Shown here in pieces: positions 23,766-45,010 of a stretch of DNA of 64,000 nt. The stretch spans positions 1 through 64,000 of the forward strand of contig JADMIJ010000006.1 in the NCBI GenBank assembly GCA_015478655.1. The letters are read 5' to 3'. Position 1 is the stretch's first letter, and each line of letters opens with the position of its first letter. Source of the DNA: Acidimicrobiales bacterium. Lineage in GTDB: Bacteria > Actinomycetota > Acidimicrobiia > Acidimicrobiales > RAAP-2. The position numbers and the translations under genes are program-made. A model generated the notes under the pieces. That model was not told where the DNA came from. It did no database searches and was given only the letters and a program-made list of their open reading frames with translations.

Positions 23766-24069
23766 GTGCACTACTCAAAGTCTCTCCGCCGTCGGCCTCT
23801 TGAATGGAGTTGCCTGACGCCCGTGGAGGCGGGTTTGTGTCCTGTCGCATGGTCCATGGTTCCAACAATACGAACCGCGGCCCGATCGTCGTAGGCCCAG
23901 ACATCGATCTTGGGTTACTTATGCGACGGTCCAGGTTCAGGACCTCGGTCGCTTGATCGCTCTGATTGAGGGTTTGACATGAGCGACCCAGTCCCATGTG
24001 TCCAGCCGGGAGGTAGCTTGGCCGTAGAGGAGCGCCAGAACGGCCCGCTCGGACATGGAAGGCCGCGGC

Positions 24070-25322
24070 GTGGGATCGACGATCAGCTGGTTGGATCACT
24101 CAGAGGAAGACCAGCGAAGGGTCCGGGAAATGCTCCGGCTCTTCGAGGACACGGACACCGTCGACGACCTGGGCATCGGCACCGTCCGGGACTCGATCAG
24201 CAACTCCCTGTTCCCGGGCACTTCGGTCATCCAGACCCGCGCTCGCTACTTCCTCTTCGTGCCATGGCTCTTCCGCCGGGCAGAGCAGAGGCACCCCCAA
24301 CAGCTCGTCGCCAAGGCCACGGACATGGAGCGCAGCCTCATCGAGGCCTTACGGGCCGGCGGGGACACCGAGGGGCTGATCGGCGTCCAGCGCGGGAAGG
24401 ACGTCCGGACCCTCCCATCGGCCATCTTCTGGGGCGGACTGATCCGCTACGGCATCTTCCTGTCGCCGTCGCTGACCATCCGCCAATACGGTCGCCACGT
24501 CGCACGGGGTCTCGCCGCCCTGGACAGGGAAGACGAGATCGGCGACCGCATCCCCTCGTTCTGGCAGCGTGACATCCCCGATCCTCCAACCGACCTCCTC
24601 CGGTTCAAGGTCGCCACCTTCGACCTGACCCGCGACGAGGCCGAATGGCTGTGCGAGCGGATCATCTCGTCCGACCGACCGGACCAGCCCGCCAGCCTGC
24701 TCACGGCCTACATCCGTGACCTCCGTCGTGGCGAACCCCTCGTTGTCGCCGACGCTATGTGGGATGCGGCACTGCCATCCGACACGCCGCCGCCCATCGC
24801 CGAGCTGGTCAGACACGCCCAGCAGTTCTCCTGCGCCACACAGGGCGCCGCTCTCCTCTACAACCTGATGCTCGCCGAGGAGCGGCTGAATACGGACCTC
24901 GAACCGACCGACGGCACCTCGGTCGACAACTACCGCCTCCGCCTCGACGAGTGGACAGCTACTGCCACCGACTTGCCGATTGGGCCGCCCGAATCAGTGA
25001 CTTCTGGGACTGCGTCCTCGACCACAGAGTGCGCATACCGCGTGACACGCGCATCTTCCTCGACGGGTGGGCGAACCTGATCGTGGAGGATCTCCGCCAG
25101 CTCGACACTTCTCCGGATGCTCGTGACCTCATCCGGAACAGAGAAATTGAGCACAAACGCGGCCAGGCTCGTCTTGCGAACAAGAAGCGCCTCCGCGAGT
25201 GGAGAGGCGACGCAGGAACCCGGCCGCTCGCGTTCCGCTGGCCGCAGGTCCAGCGGATGCTGACCGACATCGACGTCGGGCTCAATGAACCCCAATCCGA
25301 AGGCGAACATGCTGTCGCCTGA
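24070..25322 (+). pseudogene. DUF6361-family protein interrupted by a frameshift
   Basis: The reading frame from 24070 (GTG, with GGAAGG seven bases upstream) encodes the DUF6361 N terminus: ISWLDHSEED, LGIGTVRDSISNSLFPGTS and QTRARYFLFVPWLF. The similarity runs to about base 24950 (YRLRLDEW). It then continues in the -1 frame as SYCHRLADWAARISDFWD through to the stop at 25322, while the first frame would run on to 25080 with unrelated sequence. One missing base near 24946-24960 explains this. It may be a true mutation, a sequencing error or, less likely, programmed frameshifting; I see no slippery heptamer. The function of DUF6361 is unknown. It overlaps the following PLD-like gene by 14 bp. 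Confidence 0.72.
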
Positions 25323-27129
25323 CGACCGCACCCTTTTGGTCGACCTCCTGGCGCCGCCGGATGCTGGGTTCCGGCTCGAACGTGCCGTTGCCACCACATT
25401 CACTCTGCACCTCACGGCACTCCTACCCGTGCCGCTGGGACTTGCTGGCGCCGACCTCAGCTCGTCGACCGACCCCCTCAGCATCCTGCAGGCGATCCGC
25501 AACTACTCCGACCGCATCGACGTCTTCTGCCAGGCCGGGCACGTGTCGGTGCCCTCCCAGCGCAACGATCTCCTGGCCTTCCTCGAACCCATGGTCCACC
25601 AGGTGAAGGCACCGCGCCCTGGTCACCTCTTCCACCCCAAGCTCTGGGTGCTTCGGTTCGCTAATAACGACACCGAGGAGCGTTATCGCCTCGTCTGCGG
25701 CTCCCGCAACCTCACCCACGATCGGGCATGGGATGTGGTGGTCAGCCTGGAGGGCCGCCGAACCCTCCAGCGTCACGCTGTGAATCGACCCATCGCAGAC
25801 CTCTTGACGTCACTGGCTGGGCGTGTGCCCGCCGGTGTGCCAGCAGATCGCCGGGCTGCCATCGATGAACTGGCCCAAGGTGTGCGTTTCGTCGAATGGG
25901 AGCGCCCCGACAACGTCGTCAGCAAGGACTGGCTCGCCTTCCACGTCTTCGGGCCTGGTCGTGCAACCGCACCGAACATGGACGGGTACCGCCGCTTCGT
26001 CGTGTCGCCCTTCCTGAACAACGCAGGCCTCGATGCCACATGGCCGGACGGAGCCGGCGAGTGCGTCCTGCTCTCACGGGCCGAGGAACTCAACGCGCTC
26101 GGAGACGAGTGGCGGGACTGGCTCGAACAACACGCCGACCTCCGAGTGCTCGACGAGACCGCCGCCATCCCCGATCCGGACTCCGACGAGGCCGGACTCC
26201 GGTGGTCCCTTTCCGGTCTCCACGCCAAGCTCTATATCGTCGAACGCAACAAGGAAGCCCACGTTTTCCTCGGTTCAGCGAACACAACCGATGCGGCCTG
26301 GGGCGGGAACGATGAGCTGCTCGTCGAAATCGTCGGCAGGGTCGGCACCTATGGCGTCGAAGCCACCATCGGCGAGTCGACCGGATTCGGTCGTATCCTG
26401 TTACCTCACACGCTCGGCGACGTCCTCGAGGAAGCTTCCGACGACGAGCTTCGTCGCACATTCGAGAACGCGCTGCGAGAGCTTAGCGCCCTCACATACA
26501 CCGCCACCGTTGAAGGAGAACGCGAGCACCCGATGCTCTGGGTTCGCTCTGACGAGTCGCTGCGTGCCGCGGACGGCCTCCCCCCGGACACCGAACTGAC
26601 GGTCGAGCTTCTGACCATCACAGGCCAGCCTCACCGACCGTCGTTTGGGGTGCGCCTCGACCATCGCTGGCAGCTCTCTGAGGTCGAGGAGATCACACCC
26701 TTCCTCGTCATGCGCCTTGCCTCAGGCACGGGGTCGGGCCGAGTCGAGGTCAGTTCGGTCGTGCTCGCGCGCCTCGTCGGCGATCCAGCAGACCGACTCG
26801 ATCGAGTCCTCGCCCGCCGCATTGGCACTACCAGCGAGTTCCTTCGTTTCATCCTGCTCCTGCTCCAGCTCGCCGGCCGTGAGGGCTGGTTCCCTGAAGG
26901 CCAGGGCACCGGAACCTTCGATGCCTTCGGGATGGGTGACGGAGGTGCTGGCGTCCTGGAGGCCGTTCTCACTGCACTGGCCACATCGCCCGGCACGATC
27001 GACGACATCGATCGACTCGTCAAGCGCCTGACTGCCACCGAACAGGGCAGGAAGGTTCTGCCCGACGGCTGGGACGCATTCTGGCCATCGGTCGTCGATG
27101 CTCGATCAAGACTCCGGTTCCAGCAATGA
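25309..27129 (+). CDS. Phospholipase D-like (HKD) domain protein, putative nuclease
   Basis: Protein of 606 residues with two PLD-type half-sites. The first is HPKLWVLRF followed by CGSRNLT (HxK near residue 109, then GSxN). The second is HAKLYIVE followed by FLGSANTTDAAWGG (near residue 305). Together they make one phosphodiesterase active site as in PLD-family nucleases. The last 230 residues have no recognised domain. The ATG at 25309 follows GAAGG and fits homologues; ATG at 25285 is an alternative. It overlaps the DUF6361 gene by 14 bp and the helicase gene by ATGA, so the three are one translational unit. A DNA- or RNA-cleaving role in defence is inferred. Confidence 0.82.
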   Translation: MLSPDDRTLLVDLLAPPDAGFRLERAVATTFTLHLTALLPVPLGLAGADLSSSTDPLSILQAIRNYSDRIDVFCQAGHVSVPSQRNDLLAFLEPMVHQVKAPRPGHLFHPKLWVLRFANNDTEERYRLVCGSRNLTHDRAWDVVVSLEGRRTLQRHAVNRPIADLLTSLAGRVPAGVPADRRAAIDELAQGVRFVEWERPDNVVSKDWLAFHVFGPGRATAPNMDGYRRFVVSPFLNNAGLDATWPDGAGECVLLSRAEELNALGDEWRDWLEQHADLRVLDETAAIPDPDSDEAGLRWSLSGLHAKLYIVERNKEAHVFLGSANTTDAAWGGNDELLVEIVGRVGTYGVEATIGESTGFGRILLPHTLGDVLEEASDDELRRTFENALRELSALTYTATVEGEREHPMLWVRSDESLRAADGLPPDTELTVELLTITGQPHRPSFGVRLDHRWQLSEVEEITPFLVMRLASGTGSGRVEVSSVVLARLVGDPADRLDRVLARRIGTTSEFLRFILLLLQLAGREGWFPEGQGTGTFDAFGMGDGGAGVLEAVLTALATSPGTIDDIDRLVKRLTATEQGRKVLPDGWDAFWPSVVDARSRLRFQQ

Positions 27130-30100
27130 ACAACCACTCCGCCGACACCGCATTCGCGACGCTGAAAGACTTCCAGGTCGACACCGCCGAGTACGTTCTC
27201 CGCCGCCTGTACGACGACAACGAAGCCACCGACCGGTTCTTGGTCGCCGACGAGGTCGGCATGGGTAAGACCCTGGTGGCCCGTCACGTCATCGCTGGTG
27301 CCATCGCACGGCTGCAGCATGACGACAGTGTCGACCGCATCGACATTATCTACATCTGCTCGAACGCCTACATCGCTCGCCAGAACATCGCCAAGCTCGA
27401 TGTGCGCGGCGACGGCGCGAAACCGCTGTCAACGCGCATCACCATGCTCGCAACCCAACTACGCGACCTCAATCGGACAATGCCCGATGGCAGTAAGACG
27501 GTGAATCTCGTCGCGTTCACGCCCGGTACCTCGTTCGACAAGGGCCATCGCAGCGGACGCGTCGAAGAGCGCGCCCTCCTCAACTGGCTCCTTGAGCCAG
27601 TAATGGAGGGCACTCGTGCCCAGCGGAACGCCCTACAGCGCATCCTCCGAATGGAAGTCAACGAGCGGCGATGGGAGGCGATCTGCACCGGTCTCGACGA
27701 CCCTGAAGCTCTCCCCGACGCAATGGTGACGAGGAAGTTCCGGACCGCTATCCGCCGGTCGCGGGTCATCGCAGACCTCCGCGAACTGATCGATGAGCTG
27801 TACGGGCGCTCGCAGCTCAACGCCGAGCAGAATCGGCGGCGGCTCGCAATCGTCGGTGCCCTTCGTCGCGAACTCGCCAAGGTCAGCGTCGACTGCCTCG
27901 AACCTGACCTCGTCATCCTCGACGAGTTCCAACGGTTCAAGCATCTCCTCGAACGGCCGGAGGCCGATGCTGAGCGCGAGGTCAGCGAGCTGGCCCACGA
28001 CCTCTTCACTGCCGAGCAGGTCAAGGTCCTTCTGCTTTCGGCGACGCCGTACAAGATGTTCACCCTCGCAGAAGAGCGAGAGCTAACCGGTGACGATCAC
28101 TACTCCGACTTCATCGGCACCGTCGACTTCCTCGAACAACCACGCGACGAGGGAACTACGCGGCGTCTCAAGGCCGCGCTCGCCGACTTCCGGCGCCTGG
28201 TCGTGACCGGCGGAGACCCGCAGACAGCCAAGAACGAGGTCGAGAAGCTGCTGCGCAAGGTCATGTGCCGGACTGAGCGCCCGGTGTCGGGAACGGCCGA
28301 CATGCTCATCGAACGAACCGATCAGCCTGCACCACCGACCGCCGACGACCTGCTCGGCTTCGTCGCCTTGAAGAGCATCGCAGACGAGGTCGGCGGGGCA
28401 TTGTCCGTCGAATACTGGAAGTCGGCTCCGTACTTCTTGAACTTCATGGACGGCTATCAGCTGTCGGAGAAGTTCCGTCAGCACGACCTGGACCCCTGGA
28501 GCCGCCGGGCGCTCCTGACTAATGCCCAGGTCATTCGTCGCTCCGACCTTCGTGGCAGCGGCGAGATTGAACCCGGCAACGCCCGCCTTCGCCAGCTCAT
28601 GACCGAGACCGTCGACCGTGGACTGTGGCGACTGCTCTGGCTCCCGCCTTCGATGCCATACCACGAGCCCGCCGGTCCCTACGCCGAGATCGACCCCGCC
28701 ACAGCGACCAAGCGCCTCATCTTCTCCAGCTGGGCCGCTGCGCCAACCGCCATCGCCTCCCTCCTGAGTTGGACCGCCACCCACCGCATGCAAGCCGCCG
28801 TCGAAGGGGATGGCCCCACCCGACCCCGCCTCGCATACCGTATGGAGGACGGCCGGCCTGCGGGTATGACCGCACTCGCCCTGTTCCTGCCCACGCCAGG
28901 GCTCGCGGAACTCACCGACCCATTGGAGTTCGCACGCGAGACGCCCGGCGAGGTCCTCCCTGCCGAGAGCGCCCTCGCGTACGCCGAGGCGCGGGTCGCT
29001 TCGCACGTCGGGGTCGCCCGTCGCGCAAGTTCCTCACTGAGCCGCGATACCTGGTTCTGGGCCGCCCCATTCGCCATCGATGCCAACGGCCAGCACTCCG
29101 ACCTCTTCGACGACATACGCGAGAGCGAGACTTCTGAGGACCGTGGCCTCGCGACCCACCTCGACGCAGCAGACCAAGCGGCGCTAGATGAGGTCGACCT
29201 CGGCGCGCACCCGCCAGATCTCGATCGTTGGGTTGCCATGGTGGGCGTCGCCGGACCCGCCAACGTCGCATGGCGCGCATTGCGCCGCGTTACGGCCGGC
29301 ATCCCTGCCCTCACCGACGATGGCATTCGACGGTCCGCAGCGGTCATTGGGGCCGGCTTCCGGTCGCTCTTCAATCGACCGGAAGTCATGGCGTTGCTAG
29401 ACAGCCAGGGCTCGGAACTTGCGTACTGGCAGGTCGTGTTGGAGTACTGCCATGGGGGCAACCTGCAAGCTGTCCTCGATGAGTACCTCCACCATCTCGT
29501 TGGCAACCAGAATCCCCTCAACGACGATGCCCTTCTCGCTTTGGCCGCCGACGTGCGATCGGCGATTGCCCTACGTGGCGCTGTACTCCAGGGATTCGAC
29601 CCCTCCCGCCCCGAAACACCTCTGCGCTTCAACGCCCGCTTCGCGCTTCGCTACGGGTCCGCCAAGGGCACCCCAAAGACCGACGAGAAGTCGGTCGAGC
29701 GCATGTCCGTCGTTCAAGCCGCCTTCAACTCGCCGTTCTGGCCCCTGGTCCTTGCGTCAACGTCCATCGGGCAAGAAGGAATCGATTTGCACTGGTGGTG
29801 TCATTCCCTTGTCCACTGGAACCTGCCCGCCAACCCCGCTGACTTCGAACAGCGCGAAGGCCGGGTCCATCGCTTCAAGGGCCACGCCGTCCGCAAGAAC
29901 GTCGGTGCCGCGCACCGCGAGGAAGCGCTGCGCTCCCCAGCCGCTGATCCGTGGATTGCCGCTTTTGCTGCTGCCGAACTGCGTCGCCAACCCGAGATGA
30001 ATGACCTGTGGCCGTGGTGGACCTATCCGGGCGACTCCAAGATCGAACGGTGGATCCCGTCATTCCCGCTCAGCAAGGATCAGCAGCGGGAATTCCGCCT

Positions 30101-30260
30101 CAAGGTACAGCGAGCTCTTTATCGTCTCGCCTTCGGCCAGCCTCGCCAAGAGGACCTGGTCAGCATCCTCGACCTGCAGGGATACGCCGACGATGACGAG
30201 CGCCTCGCCCACCTGCGCATCGACCTGCGACCACCGAAGCATCACGCCACTCGTACCTAG
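27126..30260 (+). CDS. SF2 (SNF2/DEAD-like) helicase
   Basis: Large protein of 1044 residues. Motif I is ADEVGMGKT (42-49), motif II is LDEFQ (about 265-269, a DEFQ rather than DEAH box), motif III is LLSATPYKM (about 304-308). The C-terminal RecA lobe has ASTSIGQEGIDLHWWCHSLVHWNLP with motif VI FEQREGRVHRFKG (about 908-920). A long insert between the lobes (about 360-780) has no recognised fold. The start overlaps the PLD gene stop by four bases. The helicase probably translocates on nucleic acid and directs the PLD nuclease (inference). Confidence 0.88.
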   Translation: MNNHSADTAFATLKDFQVDTAEYVLRRLYDDNEATDRFLVADEVGMGKTLVARHVIAGAIARLQHDDSVDRIDIIYICSNAYIARQNIAKLDVRGDGAKPLSTRITMLATQLRDLNRTMPDGSKTVNLVAFTPGTSFDKGHRSGRVEERALLNWLLEPVMEGTRAQRNALQRILRMEVNERRWEAICTGLDDPEALPDAMVTRKFRTAIRRSRVIADLRELIDELYGRSQLNAEQNRRRLAIVGALRRELAKVSVDCLEPDLVILDEFQRFKHLLERPEADAEREVSELAHDLFTAEQVKVLLLSATPYKMFTLAEERELTGDDHYSDFIGTVDFLEQPRDEGTTRRLKAALADFRRLVVTGGDPQTAKNEVEKLLRKVMCRTERPVSGTADMLIERTDQPAPPTADDLLGFVALKSIADEVGGALSVEYWKSAPYFLNFMDGYQLSEKFRQHDLDPWSRRALLTNAQVIRRSDLRGSGEIEPGNARLRQLMTETVDRGLWRLLWLPPSMPYHEPAGPYAEIDPATATKRLIFSSWAAAPTAIASLLSWTATHRMQAAVEGDGPTRPRLAYRMEDGRPAGMTALALFLPTPGLAELTDPLEFARETPGEVLPAESALAYAEARVASHVGVARRASSSLSRDTWFWAAPFAIDANGQHSDLFDDIRESETSEDRGLATHLDAADQAALDEVDLGAHPPDLDRWVAMVGVAGPANVAWRALRRVTAGIPALTDDGIRRSAAVIGAGFRSLFNRPEVMALLDSQGSELAYWQVVLEYCHGGNLQAVLDEYLHHLVGNQNPLNDDALLALAADVRSAIALRGAVLQGFDPSRPETPLRFNARFALRYGSAKGTPKTDEKSVERMSVVQAAFNSPFWPLVLASTSIGQEGIDLHWWCHSLVHWNLPANPADFEQREGRVHRFKGHAVRKNVGAAHREEALRSPAADPWIAAFAAAELRRQPEMNDLWPWWTYPGDSKIERWIPSFPLSKDQQREFRLKVQRALYRLAFGQPRQEDLVSILDLQGYADDDERLAHLRIDLRPPKHHATRT

Positions 30261-30340
30261 ATCGAACAGACGCTGCCCGAACGGCGCTGATGCCGTCACC
30301 GATCAACCCGCCTCGCTCGGCCGGCTCTGCGTAGGCCCTG

Positions 30341-30787
30341 CTAAAAGACCATCCCCAGCTTTGACCCACAGCACGAATGGCAAACGACCTCGGTCCCGCC
30401 TCCCGGCACAGCGGTTCGCTCGAACCACTCGGGCGGATTGAGTTCGTTGCAGTAGTAGCAACGGCGAAACGTTCTCAGGCGATTTCGGCGGATGCGTTTG
30501 ACGGCGGGTAACGCATCTGCTCGGGTCTTCGCCTCCACGATTTTGGAGACGTGCAGCTTTGGCCACGCCGGACCGTTCCACTGGACGCCGGGCCTTCCGA
30601 CGAGCAGCCGGCTGTCTTCGGTGTAAGCGACAAGCACCTCGATGGGATCGCCGTAGGAACACCAGGTTTGGCCGGGCTCAGCGCCCGCCAAGTGTTCGAG
30701 GAGTTGACCTTCGCCGCTGAACCGTTCGAGCCAGGTGAGATAGTCCTCGGCCTGCTCGTCGTCTTCGTCTGTCACGGATGATGACAC
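30341..30787 (-). CDS. Small zinc-finger protein of unknown function
   Basis: Protein of 148 residues. An acidic N terminus (TDEDDEQAED) leads to a region of mixed strands. The C terminus carries a CxxC...CxxC pair, RRCYYCNELNPPEWF (Cys110, Cys113) and VVCHSCCGSK (Cys136, Cys139), the layout of a treble-clef zinc finger like those of HNH or TFIIS-type proteins. No HNH catalytic His-Asn is evident. The GTG start at 30787 overlaps the TAG of the metallophosphoesterase gene by one base, so it is the last gene of the Nudix-phosphoesterase-finger operon. Confidence 0.72.
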   Translation of the reverse strand: MSSSVTDEDDEQAEDYLTWLERFSGEGQLLEHLAGAEPGQTWCSYGDPIEVLVAYTEDSRLLVGRPGVQWNGPAWPKLHVSKIVEAKTRADALPAVKRIRRNRLRTFRRCYYCNELNPPEWFERTAVPGGGTEVVCHSCCGSKLGMVF

Positions 30788-31770
30788 TACGATGGGGGTG
30801 AGGTGCTTGTCTCGGGAAACTCGACGTAGTTCTCACCGGAGATTTTCGCCTCCCCGTCCCATCGGTATGCAACGAGGGGACCACCCTTCACGGCGCTGAA
30901 ATCGACGCAGACGGTGTTGGACGTCCAGTCTTGTCCCTCTTCGGGCTCCCACCTTCGCCAGTAGTGACCGTAGAAGGCGGGCTTCGGATCCTTGTAGTCG
31001 TAATCAGCCTCGCCTTGGCAATCGATGCTGGGAAGCGGCGGGTAGGGAGAACCTCCTGATGTCTTGGCACCCGGCGGGATCTCGGCCAGCTCCTGCAGAG
31101 TCGTCCCGTTGGCGTTCCACCATCGAATCCGTGCCTGGCTTCTGACGTGATCGTCCTTGTCCTTGAAGTTTGGTTGCTTGTACTTGGTGAGACTCAGCTC
31201 GGGACCCTTGAGCAGCACCTCAATCGCCTCATGCTCGGCAGTCCCCTTCTGGTTTGCCCTGATGACGAACTCAACCGGCATCGGCGTGCCAGAGGCAATC
31301 CACTGATCGACCTTCTCGATCTGTTTGTCGTTCCAGCAGGCGTGGACGACCCGGAACCCGCCTAGATCGAGATGGATCGGCATGGTCTTGAACCACTCGA
31401 TCCATTGTGCGTAGTCACCAGCGAAGAGCTGCACCTGGTCCATGAACTCTTTGTGCTGCTTCCGGTTCTTGTCGTTATGCGACCGCATGAACTCGCCGGG
31501 GATCTCGGGATTGGGCGTGGCAAACGAGATGGCGTTGAATTCGTGATTCCCCATCACGGTCTGAGCGCTGCCCGACTCGATCATCGCTCGGACGAGTACG
31601 AGAGTTTCGATCTGCTGGCCGCCTCGGTCGATGAGATCGCCGACGAAGATCGCCTGACGCCCCGGGTGCCGGTAGACACCATCTCGCTTCTCGTAGCCGA
31701 GCTTCTTGAGGAGGCCTTCGAGCTTGTCGGCGCAGCCGTGGACATCGCCGATTACGTCGTAGCCACCCAT
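30787..31770 (-). CDS. Calcineurin-like metallophosphoesterase (diadenosine-polyphosphatase-like)
   Basis: Protein of 327 residues with all metal-binding blocks of the phosphoprotein phosphatase/Ap4A-hydrolase group: GDVHGC (8-13), GDLIDRG (44-50), GNHEF (74-78), a VVHACW His, and a late FYGHYW His. It resembles the PrpE/ApaH-like group, which hydrolyse dinucleoside polyphosphates, protein phosphates or RNA 5' ends. It is 16 bp after the Nudix gene and one base before the zinc-finger gene. Pairing of a Nudix hydrolase with an ApaH-like phosphatase suggests that the substrate is a nucleotide or an RNA end. Confidence 0.87.
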   Translation of the reverse strand: MGGYDVIGDVHGCADKLEGLLKKLGYEKRDGVYRHPGRQAIFVGDLIDRGGQQIETLVLVRAMIESGSAQTVMGNHEFNAISFATPNPEIPGEFMRSHNDKNRKQHKEFMDQVQLFAGDYAQWIEWFKTMPIHLDLGGFRVVHACWNDKQIEKVDQWIASGTPMPVEFVIRANQKGTAEHEAIEVLLKGPELSLTKYKQPNFKDKDDHVRSQARIRWWNANGTTLQELAEIPPGAKTSGGSPYPPLPSIDCQGEADYDYKDPKPAFYGHYWRRWEPEEGQDWTSNTVCVDFSAVKGGPLVAYRWDGEAKISGENYVEFPETSTSPPS

Positions 31771-31786
31771 GTTCTCTCCTGGGCGC

Positions 31787-32695
31787 TCAGCCGTTGTCCG
31801 ACATGATCTTGGCGTACTCGTCGTAGGCGGCGTGGAGGGTCTTGAAGTCCCGCTCTCGGCCGGCGTCGGTTGTCTGCGAAATCAGTTCCACCGCTTCCTC
31901 GTGGGACGCCCAGGTAATGTTCCACGTTTCCTTGTTGCGCTCCACAGCAGTGGAGTCGACCTGACGCTCGGTGTCGTAGGCCAAATAGAACTTGTTGGCC
32001 GACCCCACGGAACCTCCCCGGAAGGTCTGTGGGATGTGCCCGATTATCTCGGGTTTGTAGCCGGTTTCCTCCAGCGTCTCTCGGAGCGCGGTGTCGACAG
32101 GGTGCTCACCTTTGTTGGGCCGGCCTTTGGAGAAGGTCCAGACATACCCTCCGAAGTGGTTGGCCGGCTCTCGGAGCAGCACCTGGCCCTCGTCGTTGAA
32201 TACCACAAGGCCGTACCGGGAGTTCTTGTCTTCCTCCCAGACCCCGTCGCGCTGGAGATCCCGGCCTCGGTACTCATCGGTCCTGCTGACCGGCCGTGTG
32301 CGGTAGTCGTCGACGACAAAGGGTTTCTCCGTTTCGAGGACTCTCTGCGGCGGCTTGCGTACCGAGTTCTGTTTGATCTTGCGGCAGTCGCTCCAGACGT
32401 TGCCGTAAACGTGGGCTCGCTCGCTACTGTGCCGGACCGCCACGGCGCTCTTGAAGTTGTCGTAATCGATGGCCATGGCGATCTTCGTCAGGCAATCGGC
32501 AAATTCCTTGTGCGTGGTAAACGCCCGCACCGGGTAATCACGTCCGGGAATGTGGACGTTCTCGTCGAGCGTCGGGAAATACGAAGACCGGAGCCGATCG
32601 AGATCGTCATCGCATCGGGCACGAACCTGGAGCGGATGACCGAACTCTTCGGCCGTCACGACGCTGTAGAAACCGTCCGGCGTAAATAGCCACAT
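31787..32695 (-). CDS. Nudix hydrolase with an N-terminal MWLFT domain
   Basis: Protein of 302 residues. The start at 32695 is chosen because the characteristic MWLFTPDGFYSVV N terminus begins there, with AAGGA about ten bases upstream. Residues 1-110 resemble a small stand-alone family of unknown function beginning MWL(F/M)T. The C-terminal half (about 148-290) is a Nudix domain with the box GRPNKGEHPVDTALRETLEETG, whose REtxEE core is intact. Nudix enzymes cleave nucleoside diphosphates linked to another moiety. The frame upstream to 32911 is open but has no similarity and no ribosome-binding site. First gene of a three-gene operon. Confidence 0.85.
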   Translation of the reverse strand: MWLFTPDGFYSVVTAEEFGHPLQVRARCDDDLDRLRSSYFPTLDENVHIPGRDYPVRAFTTHKEFADCLTKIAMAIDYDNFKSAVAVRHSSERAHVYGNVWSDCRKIKQNSVRKPPQRVLETEKPFVVDDYRTRPVSRTDEYRGRDLQRDGVWEEDKNSRYGLVVFNDEGQVLLREPANHFGGYVWTFSKGRPNKGEHPVDTALRETLEETGYKPEIIGHIPQTFRGGSVGSANKFYLAYDTERQVDSTAVERNKETWNITWASHEEAVELISQTTDAGRERDFKTLHAAYDEYAKIMSDNG

Positions 32696-32801
32696 TTGAG
32701 CTCGTCCTTTGCCTTGTCCTCGCCCCACGGTACACACGGGCTGTATCCATAGCTCTTGCCTGCCCTTCAGCCAGAAGGCACCGAACCGTTCGGTCAGGCA
32801 G

Positions 32802-33050
32802 TCACCGGAAGGTGAACCCGAGGTATGCCCCGTAGGCGGCGACCAGCTCGCTCCCAGCCACGCCTGCCAATCGATCCCCGTGGCGTGGATGAGACGCACC
32901 AAACGCGGCAACTCCCAACGTGGCCGTGGCGTTGTAGACGGCAGATCCGAGGACGCCGGCCAAGGCGAGCTCCCACCACGCCGCGGTTAGCGTGCACTGT
33001 GGAGCAGTGATAGCCAGGGGCGACGAGGAAGGCGGAGTAGGACAGAGCAC
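32802..33050 (-). pseudogene. Remnant of a cation exchanger-like membrane protein
   Basis: The frame reads ELALAGVLGSAVYNATATLG, then a His/Arg stretch and ELVAAYGAYLGFTFR. The first part resembles the repeat of sodium/calcium-exchanger-type proteins in actinobacteria (GxxGSxxYNxTATLG), and the last part resembles a closing membrane helix. The rest of such a protein (300 residues or more) is absent and helices seem deleted between the two parts, so this looks like a decayed fragment. The interval 32696-33105 holds no other gene that I can support. The similarity is short, so the call is tentative. Confidence 0.4.
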
Positions 33051-33105
33051 AGTCGCCGGTTCAAGACGGAGTCAATCACTACAACGACCGCTCTAGGCTG
33101 TGGTT

Positions 33106-33544
33106 ATGGACGACACCTGGATGAAGAGAGATCTTCCAGTCCTCACGGCTCTCGTCGAGCGGTTCGACGACCCAGCGGTCGACCAAGTGAGGCCGCCAGA
33201 GGTGGGAGTTCTTACGGGACTGGATGATGCTGCGGTACTACGTGCACTCACCGCACTCTGCGAGGCCCGCCCCGCTTACCTCGAGTGCATCACTGTGGGC
33301 GAAGAACGGGGTCCGGCGATCATCACTGGTGTCACCGCGCATGCTCGACAGGCCACCGGAGCATGGCCAACGGCAGAGTCTCTGGTGGATCAGCTCATAC
33401 ACGCGCTCGCTGGCGCTGCCGAGCGAGAGCAGGATCCCGAGCGCCGCTCGAAGCTCCAACAGACGGCGCTCTGGCTCGGGGGGGGCGTTACGCGACGTTG
33501 CGATTCAGGTTGCCGGCACCGTCGTGGCACAACACGTTGGGTAA
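33106..33544 (+). pseudogene. Conserved hypothetical protein, frameshifted at an eight-G run
   Basis: From ATG 33106 the frame encodes an acidic helical protein (MDDTWMKRDLPVLTALVERF, then HALAGAAEREQDPERRSKL and TALWLGG). At 33478-33485 there is a run of eight G. The current frame then becomes Arg/Cys/Gly-rich and runs on to 33627. The +1 frame gives ALRDVAIQVAGTVVAQHVG and stops at 33544, the natural-looking end, with an Ala/Val helix as in similar actinobacterial proteins. A one-base change in the G run restores it. Function unknown. It may be a slipped-strand phase switch, a decayed gene or a base-calling error. Confidence 0.6.
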
Positions 33545-33580
33545 CCGATCCGACGCTCACATGGGGAGTGGGAGGTCGCT

Positions 33581-33787
33581 TCAGCGGCGCCGGGGACCGA
33601 GCCCGATGGCGCGGACGAACGTGTTGATCTGGCGGTTTCCGGCGCGGTAGATGACCCGACGAGCTTGGCGTTCCACCTCGCCTTCGGCGCCACCTGAAAG
33701 CCCGGCGCGTCTATAACCGTGCTCGAAGGACTCGACGTTCCCGAGGTCCCGGGCGAAGCGATAGAGCTGTGACCTGGTCGTACTCAT
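33581..33787 (-). CDS. Small basic protein of unknown function
   Basis: Protein of 68 residues beginning STTRSQLYRFARDLGNVESFEHG and ending in a basic stretch (ERQARRVIYRAGNRQINTFVRAIGLGPRRR). Similar short proteins recur in actinobacteria, often beside small regulators; no function is known to me. Its start overlaps the stop of the 136-residue protein upstream (33784-33787), so the two are co-translated. High Arg content suggests contact with nucleic acid or membrane. Confidence 0.6.
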   Translation of the reverse strand: MSTTRSQLYRFARDLGNVESFEHGYRRAGLSGGAEGEVERQARRVIYRAGNRQINTFVRAIGLGPRRR

Positions 33788-34194
33788 GAGGGCAACTCTT
33801 CCTTGGCCCGGCGGTCGGCCAGGATCACGGTCTCCACGATCGCCCGGAGCTCGTCCGGATCCTCTGTGGCCTCCATGCGCGTCAACACCTCAGGCGGCAC
33901 CGGGGCACAGCCCATGCCGGCATCCTCGTGGCCCCGGCGCCAAGCCAGCCACGCCTCGCCACCCGGATCCGCCCCGTCTTCCTCCACGGCATTGATGAGG
34001 GCCACCAGCTCGACCATCCCCTCTGTTGTGACGTCGTACTCAATGACCAGCACTTTCAGCCGCCATAGCCGACGGAACTGAGTCGACGCCAGCCAACCGT
34101 AGCTGCCGTCATGTTGGTTCGGCAGTGACGGCGCCTCCGGCGGAGTCTGACGCACACGCGAGTCCGCTACAGCTCCGTGCGAGGATGCAAACAC
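33784..34194 (-). CDS. Hypothetical protein
   Basis: Protein of up to 136 residues that I do not recognise. The C-terminal 90 residues look globular and acidic (LKVLVIEYDVTTEGMVELVALINAVEEDG, then PPEVLTRMEATEDPDELRAIVETVILADRRAKEELPS). The N-terminal 40 residues are of lower quality, so the true start may be one of the internal GTG or ATG codons. It is divergent from the large nuclease-helicase gene, with only 26 bp between the two starts as drawn, which also favours a shorter protein. It overlaps the small basic protein downstream. Confidence 0.55.
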   Translation of the reverse strand: MFASSHGAVADSRVRQTPPEAPSLPNQHDGSYGWLASTQFRRLWRLKVLVIEYDVTTEGMVELVALINAVEEDGADPGGEAWLAWRRGHEDAGMGCAPVPPEVLTRMEATEDPDELRAIVETVILADRRAKEELPS

Positions 34195-34220
34195 CCAATG
34201 TGAGCTCGAAGGGGAGCTGA

Positions 34221-37200
34221 ATGTACTTCCAAGATGGTCAGCTCGTCGTTAGCCCGAGCGATCTTGTCGGCTACCTCTCGTGCCCCCACTTGACCGAACT
34301 TTCTATGGTGGTGGCACAAGGCGATCTCGCGAGGCCGCACGCAGAAGACCCCGATTTGGCCATCGTCCAGCGCCGTGGCCTCGAACACGAGGCCGCGTAC
34401 CTTACTGAGCTTGAGACAAGGGGACTCTTCATCGAGTCCATCAATGTTGACGCGGATCTCCGGATCCGCGTCAATCAAACGATCGACGCCCTCGCTGCCG
34501 GTGTCGAGGTGGTCTATCAGGCGGCATTCTTCGACAACGACGGGTCGGGTCAAGCGTGGGTTGGCTACGCCGACTTTCTCACCAAGGTGGCTCTGCCAAG
34601 CCGCCTCGGTGGCTACTCGTACGAACCCGAGGATACGAAGCTCGCCCGCCGTGTTCGACCCTCAGCCGTGCTGCAACTGTGCGCGTATGCCGAGCAGCTT
34701 GCCCGAGTCCAGGGCTGCGTGCCTGAGTTGATCCACGTCGTTCTTGGCGGACAGCGGCGTGTGTCGCTCCGACTGGCGGAGTTCGGTGCCTATTTTCGGA
34801 CGGTCAAGGCGCGATTCGAGCAAGTGCTGTCGAATGGCGCGGCCACCTACCCGACTCCCGTTGAGCACTGCTCTGTCTGCGTCTGGCGGCCGAGGTGCGA
34901 CGAACAGCGCAGTGGAGACGATCATCTGTCACTGGTGCCCGGGCTATCGAGCGAACAGGCGCGCAAGCTCTCCGAACACAGTGGAATCACGACCGTTGCA
35001 GAGCTGGCAGCCTTCTCGGGTGGCGCGGTGCCAGGTATGGCGGGAACCACGATGGAGAAGCTCTCCCGCCAGGCACGACTGCTGGTTACTGCACGTACGT
35101 CCTCGGCCGCGATCCCTCCCTATGAGTTGCTTCAGACAGCGGAACCCGGCATCGGCCTCGGCGCACTACCCGACCCCGATCCAGGCGACCTGTTCTTCGA
35201 TATCGAGGGCGATCCCTATGTGGGTGAGGGCGGCATCGAGTACCTCCTCGGGGTGGGATGGATCGCTTCGGATGGCCAGTTCGCGTACCAAGCGTTCTGG
35301 GGCCACGATGAAGCCGGAGAGAAGGCGGCCTTCGAGGCCTTTATCGACTTTGTGACCGAGCGGCTTGCCGTAGCTCCGCACCTCCACGTCTATCACTATG
35401 CCTCCTACGAACCGACCGCTCTCGGGCGCCTCATGGGGCGCCACGCGACGCGCGAGCAGGAGGTTGACGATCTGCTGCGTGGCGGCGTTCTGGTTGATCT
35501 CTACCGAGTGGCCAGGCAGGGTTTGTGCGTCGGCACGCCGTCGTATTCGTTGAAGAAGCTCGAGGCGCTCTACATGTCTGCGCGCACTGATGCCATCACC
35601 GACGCCGGTTCCTCCATTGTGGAGTACGAGCGATGGCTCGATACGAGCGACGATGCCATCCTCGCTGACCTCGAAGCGTACAACCGGGTGGACTGCGATT
35701 CGACCCGACTCCTTCGGGATTGGCTCGAAGAACGGAGGCCGGAGTACGAAGCGACCTTTGGCCTGGCGCCTTCCCGCCCACTGGCCGCTGACAGCCATGC
35801 CTCCGAAGGTGTGACTGCGGAGATCTCCGAGAACGCGGAGCTCAAGGTCCGCCTCGGAGAGTTGGCCGACGCATCTGATGTGACGTCCGCGCGTGCGGTT
35901 CGGCTCTTGGGTGAGTTGCTCGACTGGTACCGCAGGGAGGACAAGCCCAAATGGTGGCGCTTCTTCGATCGCGTACTGCGCTGTGACGCCGACGACCTGC
36001 TCCTCGACCCTGAGGCGATCTCGGGCCTTGAGTATGTGGGCGAGGCGGGGCGAGTGGCGCGTTCGATCCTCCACCGTTACCGCTTCGATCCCGACCAGCC
36101 CTACAAACTCAGCGTGGGCCAGGAGGTCCTCGACCCGTCGACGGAGCGACAGAGAATTGATGAGGGTTCGGGTCCACCAAGACCAGGCGAACTCGTATTC
36201 CTCGACCCGATCGAGGGTGTACTCGACCTTCGCCGGGGCGAGCGCTCGGCGGCGCCCCACCCTGAGCACCTCGTCCCCGGAGGTCCGCTCCGTACCGTGC
36301 AGCAGCGCGAGGCCCTCAGGCGCCTTGCGCGCGCTGTGCTCGAAGGTGGTATCGACGGCCCGGGTGCCTATCGGGCGGTTCGCGACCTACTGCTGCGCCG
36401 CCCACCGCGGCGCTCAGACCTGGCCGGAGGCGCCCTCCAGGAGTCCGGTGAAGACACCGTCAGTGCAAGCTTGAGGATCGCTGGTCACCTCGATGGAGGA
36501 TGTCTCGCCATCCAAGGTCCCCCGGGCTCCGGAAAGACGAGCACCGCTGCTCAGCTTGTGGTTGAGCTCGTCCGTGCTGGACGCACGGTCGGACTCACTG
36601 CAAACAGCCACGCGGTCATCACCCACCTGCTCGAAACAGTGATGCGCTGCGCCAAGGAGCAGGGCGTACCTCTTCGGGCCTCGCAGAAAGCAGAAGACGG
36701 TCAAGCGCTCAATCACCCTGGCGTCACCCGACGGACTGACAACGCCGACATGGCGTCGGACCTCGACCAAGGCACCAACGTCATCGCCGGCACGGCGTGG
36801 TTGTTCTCGCGTCCCGAGTTCGACCAGCGACTCGACTATCTGGTCGTCGATGAGGCGGGTCAGCTGTCTCTGGCAAACGTCTGCGCGGTCGGGACGGCCG
36901 CCAAGAACCTCGTGCTCGTCGGCGACCCACGCCAGCTTTCCCAGCCCTCCGAAGGCACGCACCCTCCAGGGGCCGGAACCTCGGGACTCGACCACCTCCT
37001 CGGCGATGCCGCCACGATCCCCCCGGACATCGGAATCTTCCTCGACCACACCCACCGGCTCCACCCAGCGATCTGCACCTTCATCTCCGAGATCGTCTAC
37101 GAGGACCGGCTCCAGTCTCTGCCGGGCTGCGAGCACCAGGCAATCGGGGGAGCTGGACCACTCGGTGGCTCCGGACTTCGTTGGGTTCCGGTCGACCATC

Positions 37201-37679
37201 AGGCCAACCGGACCTCGGCCCCAGAAGAGGCCGAGGTTATCCGTGGGCTCGTTGAGGATCTCCTAGTCCGATCCTGGACCGACAAGATGGAAAACATCCG
37301 ACCGCTTCGACTATCGGATGTCCTCGTGGTGGCGCCGTACAACGCGCAGGTGGCTCTCCTCGGCAGAACTCTTCCGAACGGAGTTCGCGTCGGCACCGTG
37401 GACCGGTTCCAAGGCCAGGAAGCTCCTGTGGTGATCGTGTCGCTGACGACCTCCAGCAGTGATCAGATCCCCCGCGGGTTCGACTTCCTATACAGCCAAG
37501 AACGCCTCAACGTGGCCGTGTCTCGCGCTCAGGCCCTCACTATTCTTGTTGGATCACCCGCGCTGCTCAGTGTCGCGTGCCGAACCGTGCAACAGCTTCG
37601 ACTCGCCAACGGCCTTTGTCGATTCATCGAGCTCGCGGAGGTGATCCAACCTGAGTGCTGGCAAGAGGCCAGTCCGTGA
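34221..37679 (+). CDS. TM0106-type RecB-like nuclease fused to a Upf1-like SF1 helicase
   Basis: Protein of 1152 residues. The N terminus has a RecB/Cas4-like nuclease (SPSDLVGYLSCPHL, Cys21), with the other iron-sulfur cysteines near residues 216-225 (HCSVCVWRPRC). A helix-hairpin-helix follows (LVPGLSSEQARKLSEHSGI), then an RNase H-like part (LFFDIEGDPYVGEGG, with HLHVYHYASYEPTAL). The C-terminal half is an SF1B helicase: GPPGSGKT (about 766-773), VVDEAGQLS (about 875-883), VGDPRQLSQPSEG, VDRFQGQEAPVVI and FLYSQERLNVAVSRA. The ATG follows GGGGAG. Such fusions process DNA or RNA ends and occur in defence islands. The next gene overlaps it by GTGA. Confidence 0.88.
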   Translation: MYFQDGQLVVSPSDLVGYLSCPHLTELSMVVAQGDLARPHAEDPDLAIVQRRGLEHEAAYLTELETRGLFIESINVDADLRIRVNQTIDALAAGVEVVYQAAFFDNDGSGQAWVGYADFLTKVALPSRLGGYSYEPEDTKLARRVRPSAVLQLCAYAEQLARVQGCVPELIHVVLGGQRRVSLRLAEFGAYFRTVKARFEQVLSNGAATYPTPVEHCSVCVWRPRCDEQRSGDDHLSLVPGLSSEQARKLSEHSGITTVAELAAFSGGAVPGMAGTTMEKLSRQARLLVTARTSSAAIPPYELLQTAEPGIGLGALPDPDPGDLFFDIEGDPYVGEGGIEYLLGVGWIASDGQFAYQAFWGHDEAGEKAAFEAFIDFVTERLAVAPHLHVYHYASYEPTALGRLMGRHATREQEVDDLLRGGVLVDLYRVARQGLCVGTPSYSLKKLEALYMSARTDAITDAGSSIVEYERWLDTSDDAILADLEAYNRVDCDSTRLLRDWLEERRPEYEATFGLAPSRPLAADSHASEGVTAEISENAELKVRLGELADASDVTSARAVRLLGELLDWYRREDKPKWWRFFDRVLRCDADDLLLDPEAISGLEYVGEAGRVARSILHRYRFDPDQPYKLSVGQEVLDPSTERQRIDEGSGPPRPGELVFLDPIEGVLDLRRGERSAAPHPEHLVPGGPLRTVQQREALRRLARAVLEGGIDGPGAYRAVRDLLLRRPPRRSDLAGGALQESGEDTVSASLRIAGHLDGGCLAIQGPPGSGKTSTAAQLVVELVRAGRTVGLTANSHAVITHLLETVMRCAKEQGVPLRASQKAEDGQALNHPGVTRRTDNADMASDLDQGTNVIAGTAWLFSRPEFDQRLDYLVVDEAGQLSLANVCAVGTAAKNLVLVGDPRQLSQPSEGTHPPGAGTSGLDHLLGDAATIPPDIGIFLDHTHRLHPAICTFISEIVYEDRLQSLPGCEHQAIGGAGPLGGSGLRWVPVDHQANRTSAPEEAEVIRGLVEDLLVRSWTDKMENIRPLRLSDVLVVAPYNAQVALLGRTLPNGVRVGTVDRFQGQEAPVVIVSLTTSSSDQIPRGFDFLYSQERLNVAVSRAQALTILVGSPALLSVACRTVQQLRLANGLCRFIELAEVIQPECWQEASP

Positions 37680-38317
37680 GTAAGTGGGCCAAGCTGACGA
37701 CGGATCAAGTGCTAGGCAGCTCCTGCGCTGCGCTGTCGCAATCCGAACAGGGTTGGAACGACCTATGTGGCGGTGAGGATTCACTTCGCCAATGGAATGG
37801 CCTCAAGTCGATGATCACAGCTGCCCGCACGACGACTTGGATCTTGCAGAAGCTCTCCTCTCGGGAATCTACTTTTGACGCTTGGTACGCACCAATTCAG
37901 GATGAGATGGCCGCCGACGAGTTGTTGCGTTACTTCCACCGATTGCGCACCGTAATTGAAAAGGAGGGCATGCCCCAGCCAATTATTGCCACGGTGGAGT
38001 TTCTCGAACCCGCCAACGGTGTCGTCGCGACGGCAGAGGTGGGTGTGGGGGAAGACCAGTTTGGGCTGTGGATTCATGGCGTCCTAGACAAGGGCCCGCA
38101 GCGAAGGTCGGCCGAAGTTGCGGCAGCGAGGGCTGCCACCCACCATCGGCTTCGCGACGTGCGATTGCCAGACCCACCTGCCCATCATCAGGGCCAGCTT
38201 CTCGAGGACCGCAGCATCGAATACCTCGGGCGCCGTTACCTGGACTACCTCGATGTGCGAATAGTCAGGCCGGCATGCGAGACCTTTGGCAAGCGCTCCC
38301 AACGCAACGAGGGCTGA
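37676..38317 (+). CDS. Protein of unknown function co-translated with the nuclease-helicase
   Basis: Protein of 213 residues starting at a GTG that overlaps the nuclease-helicase stop (GTGA). I recognise no domain. The N-terminal half is helical (SKWAKLTTDQVLG, MITAARTTTWILQKL, DELLRYFHRLRTVIEKEG). Then come strands (QPIIATVEFLEPANGVVATAEVGVG, FGLWIHGVLD) and a C-terminal helix ending with charged residues. No signal peptide or membrane segment. The overlap indicates that it works with the nuclease-helicase as a two-gene system. Its 3' end converges on the PLD-SNF2 helicase gene, 59 bp away. Confidence 0.65.
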   Translation: MSKWAKLTTDQVLGSSCAALSQSEQGWNDLCGGEDSLRQWNGLKSMITAARTTTWILQKLSSRESTFDAWYAPIQDEMAADELLRYFHRLRTVIEKEGMPQPIIATVEFLEPANGVVATAEVGVGEDQFGLWIHGVLDKGPQRRSAEVAAARAATHHRLRDVRLPDPPAHHQGQLLEDRSIEYLGRRYLDYLDVRIVRPACETFGKRSQRNEG

Positions 38318-38376
38318 GCACTGGGGATAGGAATTCCAATTCTCTTCGACCGGTTTGCGACTTCGCCCCTGGCTTT

Positions 38377-41300
38377 CTACAGCTTGTCTCCAAGTGAAAA
38401 CTCGCCGATTTGTTCAGCAATCGTCACGACCGTCCCGTTGCCTGCGAGGTTGCTGCCAACCCCGGCACGCATGAGCACAAGGTCGAATAGCGGATCGCCG
38501 TAACTAAGGAGTCGCACCTCGGGGGAGTTTTCGTCCAGAACAATCCGGTCGAACGTGACGGCTATCTTGTTCCCGCTCTCGTCCTCCACGAGCCACGCTC
38601 CATCGATCATGGGGTGCTCGGAAAGCTGCTCCCTGGTCGCAGGGGAGTCCAGAAGGATTCGCTGAACGTCTTCGAGCGTCACGACGGGCGAAAGGATTCC
38701 CGCCGCTGGGTCCACGTCGTCGTTATTGAAGATGGTCACCGTGACAGCCTGCGCCTCCGCTTTATGGATCTCGTTCAGCAACTGCTGGACGATTTGTTCC
38801 ACGGATTGATCGGGTAGGAGTTGCGGTGCGTCCCCGCTGCTCTCCTCTGGTCCCATTTCGTATTGAACGATGGCGTCCTCAACGCTGGCGAGGACCGGCT
38901 GGGCCGGCCCCACTACCCAGGAGAAGCCGTCGTGCCCGGCGGCGATGCCCTTATAGATCTGCTCCTCGATGGTGTTCTGGTAAAACAGGTTGGTGACCTC
39001 GACAATCGGCTTGCCGTTGATGCGGTCGAGCCGACCGATGCGCTGTTCGACCCGCATGAAGTTCCACGGCATGTCGTAGTTGATGAGCCGCCCACAGGTC
39101 TGGAGGTTGAGCCCCTCGGAGAGGGCATCCGTGCCGACCAGGATCTTGATCTCGTTTCCCTCCTGGAACAGCCGCTTGGTCTCCTTCTTCGTGACATCGA
39201 TCCATTCGCCGGTCTCAGGGTGACGCCTCCGCCCACCGGAGCCGGAGTACGACATCACCCGGGATCCGTAGGCGGTAGACAGCTGATCGACGACGTAGTT
39301 CATCGTGTCCGCGTATTGGGTGAAGATGAGCACGGTGTCGTGGCCGGACTTGAAAGATGCGTCGATGTACTTGTGGAGACGGTCCATCTTCGACTCGTCC
39401 GCGGGCAGATCGGTCAGGTCTTTGATGAATTGGTTCAGTTCCCAAATCTCGTTCTCAAGCTCCTGGATAGGGGTTTGCTCCAGATCCTCCAGGTCGAGAG
39501 GGAGGGTCGGGTTGGCCATTACGTCGTCGTCATCCAGCAGGTTTGAGGCGGTGAGCTTTCCTTCGAGGACGTCCCGCCGGCGCTCAAGCGACAGGCGGAT
39601 CGACTGGAAGGACGAAGTGAGGCGGCGGCGGTAGACGGTCATAATGAACCCGAGCGCCTTTTGGGCCTGGCTCCCATGCATGTACCGGTTGTACGAGCGC
39701 TTGATGTAGGACCGAATCCGCTCGTACAGCTCCCATTCCTCGTCGGTCATGCGGATGAATTTGTCCTCGACCCTCCGCTCGGGGATGACGGTACCTGGCG
39801 GCAGCAGCCCGGCGTCCTCGTACGCGCGGAGCGTCACACGGGTGTTTCGGAAGACCCGCTCCCGCATTGGGTTGTTCGTCAGCAACCAAGTCGTGACCCA
39901 CGGTTGAAGCTCAGGGCCGAGGCCCTTCGCTTTCGACTGTGTGAGGCCGGTCTCTGCGACTTGCCGTACCCAAAGGGCTTCGGCAATGCCAAGCTCAGAA
40001 TCGATCTTCTCGTCAAGAACCCGGTCGGTCCGAGCAGCGGAGTCCGACAGGCTGTCGTGCGCCATGACTGTCAGGAAGCCCCAGTGGCGTCGCTCGAAGT
40101 CCTCCCGCAGTTCATCGAAGTAGCGAATGAACTCCTTCGAGGACTCTCCCCAGTGACCAGGGAGGCCGAGCAGCTCAACCAAATCCCATGCCTCATGAGG
40201 GTGCATCTGCATCGGCGTGGCCGAGGCGAGGAACAGAGCCCTGTACGCGTTGTTGTCCCTCAGTGCTTGGAGCAGTCTCAGAAGCTGGTTGGGTGTGCCG
40301 TTCGTCTTGCCTCCACTGCGTCGTGCGTGATGGGCCTCGTCGACCAATACGACGTCCCACGGACCCGCAGCAAGGACTTCTCGGATCCTGTCGCGCCGCC
40401 GTGCCAGATGTGACGAGGCGAGCACGATCGGAAACGCCGCCCATGGGGTGCCAGACGATGACACGACCTTGTTGTCGGGGTCGATGAACTCTCCACCCTC
40501 GTACCGATTGACCCGCAGGTTTAGCTTCTCGCTCAACTCCTCCTGCCACTGGCGGAGCACGGCGGCAGGAACGAGGAGAAGGAACCGCTCAGCTTTCCCG
40601 GACAAGAGAAGCTCCCGGATGATGAAACCGGCCTCGATGGTCTTCCCCAAGCCCACCTCGTCAGCGAGGAAGTATCCACGCGGCCATGTCTCCACTGCCC
40701 TGCGGACGAGAGAGGTCTGGTGAGGGAGCGGCTCGACCCCGGCGGTCGCCATCCCCACGTACGAGCCGCCACCGACTCGGGGAGCCTCGGCAAGCTCGAC
40801 CAGCCGAGGATCTAGCTCAACCGGAAAAGCCGGCAGCGAGGCAACAATTCGATGTTCCTCCGGGTCAGGTCCAATTGGTGGAAAGTCGCCCTTGGCCCAC
40901 TTGATGAGTTCGTCTCGAACGGCATCGTGCAGACTTAGGACTTTCCAACCCTCGTCGGGCCGGTCACGCCAGTGCGCATCAAACAGGGCCACAAGACCGG
41001 CGCCGATGTCATCCCAGGTCTCGGTCCGCCAGGTCGGCGCTGCGGCGAACGTCTCATGGTTGCCGACCCAACCCTGCCAGGTTTCATTGTCCGACCCGAT
41101 GAATGCGACCCGGTCGGCCGGGTCCGTGCAGTCTGTGAAGATCCCGTATTTTGAATGAAAGTACTTCGTCGCCTCAGCTAACCGATACGGCCTGCCCGTG
41201 GCCGGATCAACTGGGACGCCGACTCGAATTTCAAGACGGCCCTCCTTGACAAGCCAACCCAGCACGTTCCGCCGATGTTCGGCGATCACGTGCTTGGCCT

Positions 41301-41625: not shown

Positions 41626-41628
41626 GAC

Positions 41629-44538: not shown

Positions 44539-44548
44539 GACGACTCCT

Positions 44549-45010
44549 TCACGAAGTGATACCTGTGCGGCCGTCGTCCGCCAATAGGATTCTGAGAGCG
44601 CGCCTTGCCCGCTGCGCGATTGGGCCGGTGATCCGAGCGAACCAGTAGTACGCCTCCTCAGCGCTCATGGCGGAGATGCCAGCGAGGATGGCGTGTCGCC
44701 GACTGGACTTCGTGATCGGCTCGATGGCTATCAAGGCGAGCGCAAGCCGCACCCCGGCCGGCTCTTCAAGAGGAATGGGCTTGCGACGACCCGGTGAGAG
44801 TTTCGTGCGCGGCTGGTGGGATTCTCTCAGAGCTTGTTGGAGTATGTCTGAAACGCCAGGAACCTCATCGGACCGGAGGTGGGCGAGGCGTTTGGGAGGT
44901 ATTGCGGCGCTGCCATTGGTCTCTTCGAGCCGGAGACCGTACTCGTCACTTGAAACGGGCTCCACGATGATCCGAAAGCCCCGGATCTTGGACTGCTGGA
45001 TGGCGCTCAT
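44549..45010 (-). CDS. Small protein of the DUF499/DUF1156 defence operon
   Basis: Protein of 153 residues between the ATPase and methylase genes, overlapping the ATPase stop by ATGA and ending ten bases before the methylase start. The N-terminal half is strand-rich (SKIRGFRIIVEPVSSDEYGLRLEE). The C-terminal half is helical (GVRLALALIAIEPITKSSRRHAILAGISAMSAEEAYYWFARIT and RARRALRILLADDG). Small uncharacterised proteins occupy the same slot in related operons. No catalytic motif is visible. A subunit of the ATPase-methylase complex is the simplest guess. Confidence 0.72.
   Translation of the reverse strand: MSAIQQSKIRGFRIIVEPVSSDEYGLRLEETNGSAAIPPKRLAHLRSDEVPGVSDILQQALRESHQPRTKLSPGRRKPIPLEEPAGVRLALALIAIEPITKSSRRHAILAGISAMSAEEAYYWFARITGPIAQRARRALRILLADDGRTGITS

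What the first reader, a model, noticed from the sequence alone, without database searches (positions are those of the whole stretch)
24070..30260. Three-gene DUF6361 / PLD nuclease / SF2 helicase cassette as a candidate undescribed defence system
A DUF6361 protein of unknown function, a two-site PLD-like protein and a 1044-residue SF2 helicase overlap each other (14 bp and ATGA), right after a tRNA integration site. I know of no named defence system with this set: it lacks the DUF1998 helicase of DISARM, and no methylase accompanies it. A helicase plus a phosphodiesterase plus a sensor-like first gene fits an anti-phage restriction machine.
Basis: partly seen in the sequence, partly recalled or inferred. 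Interest (0 to 1): 0.82.

Follow-up and report, generated by a model that had tools for sequence, protein, structure and literature searches.

The report
Known Azaca anti-phage operon, zacA frameshifted
The three genes are a copy of Azaca, an already named bacterial anti-phage system, and in this genome the first gene carries a 7-base deletion that probably disables it, so the finding is largely ordinary.

Summary
The cassette exists but is not undescribed: it is Azaca (zacA-zacB-zacC), a named anti-phage system. PADLOC profiles match all three genes: ZacA 288 + 92 bits, ZacB 519, ZacC 1076. The three-gene order holds in all 34 loci I examined, from several phyla, and in all 40 listed plasmid records.

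Two 85-88% identical relatives carry seven extra bases after 24969. In the window the frame breaks after 300 codons and stops at 25080, and the conserved C-terminal 119 residues lie in another frame. The break is recent, or an assembly error. As sequenced, the system probably lacks a functional ZacA.

The operon sits in a defence island of at least 26 kb with an Hma-like system. The same island at 92-96% identity in a genome of another genus has lost exactly Azaca.

Likely mechanism (inferred): an ATP-driven SF2 helicase (ZacC) works with a PLD-fold phosphodiesterase (ZacB) to attack invading DNA, and the all-helical ZacA gates or couples them. ZacA has no recognisable relative of known structure.

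The parts
24070..25080 (+). zacA (DUF6361), 5' part: in frame to 24969 (300 codons), then 36 off-frame residues to a stop at 25080
   Evidence: PF19888 2.8e-43; PADLOC ZacA 288 bits, profile 3-288 of 396; conserved start
24970..25322 (+). zacA 3' part, in another frame: encodes the conserved C-terminal residues but is cut off from the start codon by a 7-nt deletion after 24969
   Evidence: PADLOC ZacA 91.5 bits, profile 294-395; 7-nt gap against both L002 and L003; tblastn
25309..27129 (+). zacB, PLD-superfamily protein with two half-sites (HPK...SRN and HAK...GSAN), intact
   Evidence: PADLOC ZacB 519 bits; invariant HxK and N in 13 homologs; predicted fold matches Tdp1/PLD
27126..30260 (+). 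zacC, SF2 helicase of 1044 aa with motifs ADEVGMGKT, DEFQRF, LLLSATPY, STSIGQEGID, EQREGRVHR, intact
   Evidence: PADLOC ZacC 1076 bits; motif positions; single copy in the genome
24028..30263 (+). unit of homology with two other Actinomycetes MAGs whose flanks do not match this window (the operon plus about 41 bp upstream)
   Evidence: blastn of the whole window against L002 (87.6%) and L003 (85.2%)
23980..49850 (.). defence island shared at 92-96% with G409:C51 (another genus, same family); there 24142-30270, i.e. the operon, is deleted; right end not reached

Best explanation
The cassette is an Azaca anti-phage operon, zacA-zacB-zacC, in a horizontally shared defence island. In this genome zacA has lost 7 bases, so the encoded ZacA lacks its conserved C-terminal bundle and the system is probably off, unless the deletion is an assembly error. 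How an intact Azaca works (inferred, not shown): ZacC, an SF2 helicase/translocase, engages invading DNA with ATP. ZacB, a two-half-site PLD-fold phosphodiesterase, cuts it through the usual phosphohistidine chemistry, as in helicase-linked PLD restriction enzymes such as SauUSI. ZacA, an all-helical protein of no recognised fold, acts as the gate or adaptor joining recognition to cutting. Confidence: about 0.97 for the identity, 0.65 that this copy is disabled, 0.45 for the mechanism.
For: Identity: PADLOC hits at 288 + 91.5, 519 and 1076 bits over nearly full profiles. A-B-C order in 34 of 34 loci with enough flank, including 14 found by searching for ZacB rather than ZacA, from Actinomycetota, Myxococcota, Planctomycetota and Pseudomonadota. 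All 40 listed plasmid records with ZacA also have ZacC on the same strand. Gene overlaps are conserved. Break: a 7-nt gap against both close relatives at the same place; every other locus but one, Caballeronia p2 with two in-frame stops, has zacA in one frame. Recent: zacA C-part dN/dS to L002/L003 is 0.20, the same as between the two intact copies (0.21). Mechanism: both PLD half-sites and the helicase motifs are invariant or nearly so. The ZacB model's best PDB matches are Tdp1, phospholipase D, SauUSI and NgoAVII (E 1e-6 to 7e-4), with BfiI next at 5e-3; a sequence match to SauUSI at 5.9e-5.
Against: No activity was tested. The genome is a draft with 347 contigs, so an assembly error cannot be excluded. 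The ZacB fold matches are partial (TM-score 0.13-0.5). Half-site 1 lacks the HKD aspartate (R or E in its place), so its catalytic state is uncertain. Nothing assigns a role to ZacA beyond co-occurrence and conservation. The mechanism of Azaca is listed as unknown in the papers read (PMC10482375, PMC12926258).
Confidence: 0.9

Rival explanations
1. It is an undescribed three-gene restriction-like defence system.
For: The Pfam names alone (DUF6361, PLD, DEAD) carry no system name, and no methylase belongs to the operon.
Against: Full-length PADLOC hits to ZacA, ZacB and ZacC; the same A-B-C unit in 34 of 34 loci; Azaca is named in several papers (PMC12278908, PMC10952713, PMC10121019).
Confidence: 0.01
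2. The 7-nt deletion is an assembly or sequencing error and this genome carries an intact, working Azaca.
For: The assembly is a fragmented draft; there is no sign of relaxed selection in the C-terminal part, zacB or zacC.
Against: A clean 7-nt loss away from any long homopolymer is not the usual short-read error (own knowledge); the same gene is broken by stops in Caballeronia p2, zacC is frame-split in G580 and interrupted in G604, and the sister island has lost the whole operon, so decay of Azaca is not rare.
Confidence: 0.33
3. The frameshift is programmed: ribosomes shift frame to make full-length ZacA, or a shorter ZacA is a deliberate product.
For: The downstream frame is still conserved.
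Against: 32 of the other 33 loci encode ZacA in one frame and the remaining one has in-frame stops; the difference is a 7-nt deletion and I saw no slippery run at the site.
Confidence: 0.02
4. It is a remnant or variant of DISARM or another PLD plus helicase system.
For: Weak DrmC hits to ZacB (0.0055) and DrmD/DrmA/DpdE hits to the helicase C-terminal lobe of ZacC.
Against: Those hits cover only about 40-70 residues and score 11-46 bits, against 519 and 1076 for ZacB and ZacC; no DUF1998 protein or methylase in the operon.
Confidence: 0.01

Closest known systems
Azaca (ZacA, ZacB, ZacC; Millman et al. 2022, as cited in PMC10121019 and PMC10952713)
   Same: All three families over nearly their full length, same order, same strand, overlapping genes.
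   Different: In this copy zacA is split by a 7-nt deletion; close relatives L002 and L003 are intact.
SauUSI, NgoAVII and BfiI (PLD-family restriction endonucleases, SauUSI with its own helicase)
   Same: PLD phosphodiesterase fold; in SauUSI it is fused to an ATP-driven helicase. ZacB has a sequence match (5.9e-5) to 7clg and structural matches to 7clg and 4rct, and a weaker one to 2c1l.
   Different: Azaca splits nuclease and helicase into two proteins and adds ZacA; ZacB carries two half-sites in one chain.
Tyrosyl-DNA phosphodiesterase Tdp1
   Same: Best Foldseek matches of the ZacB model (E 1.3e-6 to 9e-6): a two-lobed PLD fold with HxK...N half-sites.
   Different: About 12% identity, TM-score 0.41-0.48 to the target; half-site 2 of ZacB usually has the D (8 of 13) or E (4 of 13) of classical HKD.
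DISARM (DrmA/B/C/D/E plus methylase)
   Same: Contains a PLD protein and SF2 helicases.
   Different: No DUF1998 helicase and no methylase in the operon; profile scores far below those of Zac.

Membership tests
Azaca | ZacA (DUF6361) present | tested here: met
   PADLOC ZacA 288 + 91.5 bits, PF19888 2.8e-43
Azaca | ZacB (PLD) present, both half-sites kept | tested here: met
   519 bits, profile 1-582 of 586; HPK..SRN and HAK..GSAN
Azaca | ZacC (SF2 helicase) present with motifs | tested here: met
   1076 bits, profile 2-1017 of 1019; motifs
Azaca | three genes adjacent in the order A-B-C on one strand | tested here: met
   24070-30260; same in 34 of 34 loci
Azaca | all three genes intact (needed for a working system, not for membership) | tested here: not met
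   zacA split after 24969 by a 7-nt deletion
Azaca | protects against phages | not testable with these tools
   needs a plaque assay
DISARM | DrmB (DUF1998) and a DNA methylase beside DrmA helicase | tested here: not met
   no DUF1998 or methylase in the operon; helicase and PLD score 11-46 bits to Drm profiles against 519-1076 to Zac

The most novel reading that the evidence does not exclude
Azaca is an ATP-driven, split version of the helicase plus PLD restriction enzymes, with ZacB a two-half-site, Tdp1-like phosphodiesterase and ZacA a new all-helical gate whose C-terminal bundle is needed to switch the complex on; this natural deletion would then be a ready-made loss-of-function allele.
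Probability: 0.3. Interest if true: 0.4.

Novelty: already known. Interest (0 to 1): 0.15.

Why it matters
It removes a false lead: the cassette is a named system. What remains of some use: the mechanism of Azaca is still listed as unknown (PMC10482375, PMC12926258), ZacB resembles PLD restriction enzymes and Tdp1 in predicted structure, ZacA has no recognised fold relative, and this locus together with its sister island (operon deleted) shows Azaca being lost from an otherwise conserved island.

Tried and rejected
Preferential loss of zacA as a clue to its role: rejected, since breaks occur in zacA (window, Caballeronia p2) and in zacC (G580 frame split, G604 C-terminal interruption).

Programmed frameshift: rejected (see rivals).

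tRNA-Met as the integration site: no second copy of the tRNA end in the window; relatives keep UPF0182 then tRNA-Met, but their contigs end soon after the tRNA, so no empty site could be read.

Fold of ZacA: Foldseek best E 0.62 and VIA-align best Z 4.0, all short helical stretches, so no relative can be named; this does not show that the fold is new, because only the whole 419-residue model was searched.

Phage-borne copies: scanning viral contigs with ZacC gave only short generic helicase matches, the longest about 110 residues.

Promoter and terminator scan: nothing above chance.

Literature: the original Azaca paper is not in the held library, so its experimental claims were not read here. 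A search by gene name found nothing relevant.

Full report
The observation. The first gives PF19888 (DUF6361) at 2.8e-43, the second PF13091 (PLD-like) at the family threshold, the third DEAD and Helicase_C. zacB and zacC overlap by ATGA at 27126-27129.

The first gene is broken. From 24070 the frame runs to a stop at 25080. The DUF6361 match in that frame ends at profile position 281 of 388, and the rest (292-384) is found in a different frame, ORF 24759-25322. Two relatives at 85-88% DNA identity (L002, JAJZMD010000150; L003, JAJZKA010000098) both have seven more bases at this spot and one open frame of 419 residues. The window's ZacA therefore keeps 300 residues, adds 36 off-frame residues and loses 119, including six of the 25 residues invariant in 13 homologs (W307, E361, K365, R392, W393, D402 in L002 numbering). 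In the AlphaFold2 model of the intact L002 protein (mean pLDDT 82.9, pTM 0.82) the lost part is the C-terminal helical bundle. dN/dS of the severed part is 0.20 against each relative, as between the two intact genes (0.21), so the break is recent or is an assembly error. zacB (0.08-0.09) and zacC (0.07-0.08) are under strong purifying selection.

What it is. PADLOC profiles name all three genes: ZacA 288 + 91.5 bits, ZacB 519, ZacC 1076. This is Azaca. Papers in the held library list Azaca with ZacC as an SF1/SF2 helicase (PMC12278908) and with a PLD-like domain (PMC10952713), and use it as a known system in E. coli (PMC10121019) and Pseudomonas islands (PMC12629846). Its mechanism is given as unknown (PMC10482375; PMC12926258). 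The original description (Millman et al. 2022) is not held; that it tested Azaca experimentally is my own knowledge.

Co-occurrence. Starting from ZacA, nine of nine loci with a full ZacA match from the genome collection and three of three from a phylum sample with enough flank have ZacB and ZacC directly downstream. Starting from ZacB in the host order, 14 of 14 have all three. Seven of seven annotated plasmid loci do too, down to 23% identity. In all, 34 of 34 loci including the window. All 40 listed plasmid records with ZacA also appear in the ZacC list, on the same strand. Lone ZacA matches are short N-terminal remnants (29, 118 and 77 aa), or lie on contigs that end (L023, L024). In a sample of 396 Actinomycetota genomes, 8 match the ZacA profile, including this one and two of the remnants.

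Context. The operon, with about 41 bp upstream, is the exact unit of homology with L002 and L003, whose flanks do not match this window. The window's island, 23980 to at least 49850, is present at 92-96% identity in a genome of another genus in the family (G409:C51, by its length and match the PMOE01000061 contig), but there everything from 24142 to 30270 is missing and about 98 unrelated bases stand in its place; 29 residues of ZacA survive, so this is a loss. The island also holds an Hma-like cassette (38377-48429) and a nuclease/helicase gene (34221-37679). GC drops from about 0.70 to 0.57-0.67 over the island. Azaca and Hma also share a hotspot in Pseudomonas islands (PMC12629846).

How it may work. 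Shown: ZacB has two invariant HxK...N half-sites (H109/K111/N134 and H305/K307/N325; the HKD acidic residue is D or E in 12 of 13 at site 2 and not conserved at site 1), and its model (pLDDT 82.0) matches Tdp1, phospholipase D, SauUSI and NgoAVII, and more weakly BfiI, with a sequence match to SauUSI. ZacC keeps all SF2 motifs. ZacA has no sequence match in the PDB and no convincing fold match. Inferred: ZacC translocates on invading DNA, ZacB cuts, and ZacA gates or couples. In this genome the gate is truncated, so the system is probably inactive.

Verdict. The locus is an instance of a known system, apparently disabled.

Noticed in passing
window 38377-48429 (-): Second defence cassette in the same island: SNF2-type helicase with a PLD-like N-terminus, DUF1156 methylase (PADLOC HmaB 236 bits), a DUF7680 protein and a DUF499 ATPase (HmaC 295 bits), i.e. 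Hma-like.
   Followed up: partly
window 34221-37679 (+): 1152-aa protein with an RNase H-like domain and an SF1-type helicase (AAA_11/AAA_12), weak Cas4-like nuclease match; scores 166 bits to MkoA, best stretch over the helicase part.
   Followed up: no
window 30787-32911 (-): Metallophosphoesterase and NUDIX genes side by side; a metallophosphoesterase-NUDIX pair also lies near Azaca on Bradyrhizobium elkanii plasmid pBel61.
   Followed up: no
L066 7998-9236 (Caballeronia sp. Lep1P3 plasmid p2): Another broken zacA: two in-frame stop codons, annotated as three small genes, with zacB and zacC open.
   Followed up: yes
L149 (G580) and L141 (G604): Azaca copies with zacC split between two frames (G580) or its last ~45 residues separated by over 1 kb (G604).
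   Followed up: no
L005, L006, L021 and others (ZacA/ZacB junction): The zacA-zacB overlap takes a few fixed values (mostly 14 or 8 bp), suggesting translational coupling.
   Followed up: no
window 43807-44341: Only other stretch of the shared island without a DNA match in G409, inside the DUF1156 methylase gene; possibly a variable region of the methylase.
   Followed up: no
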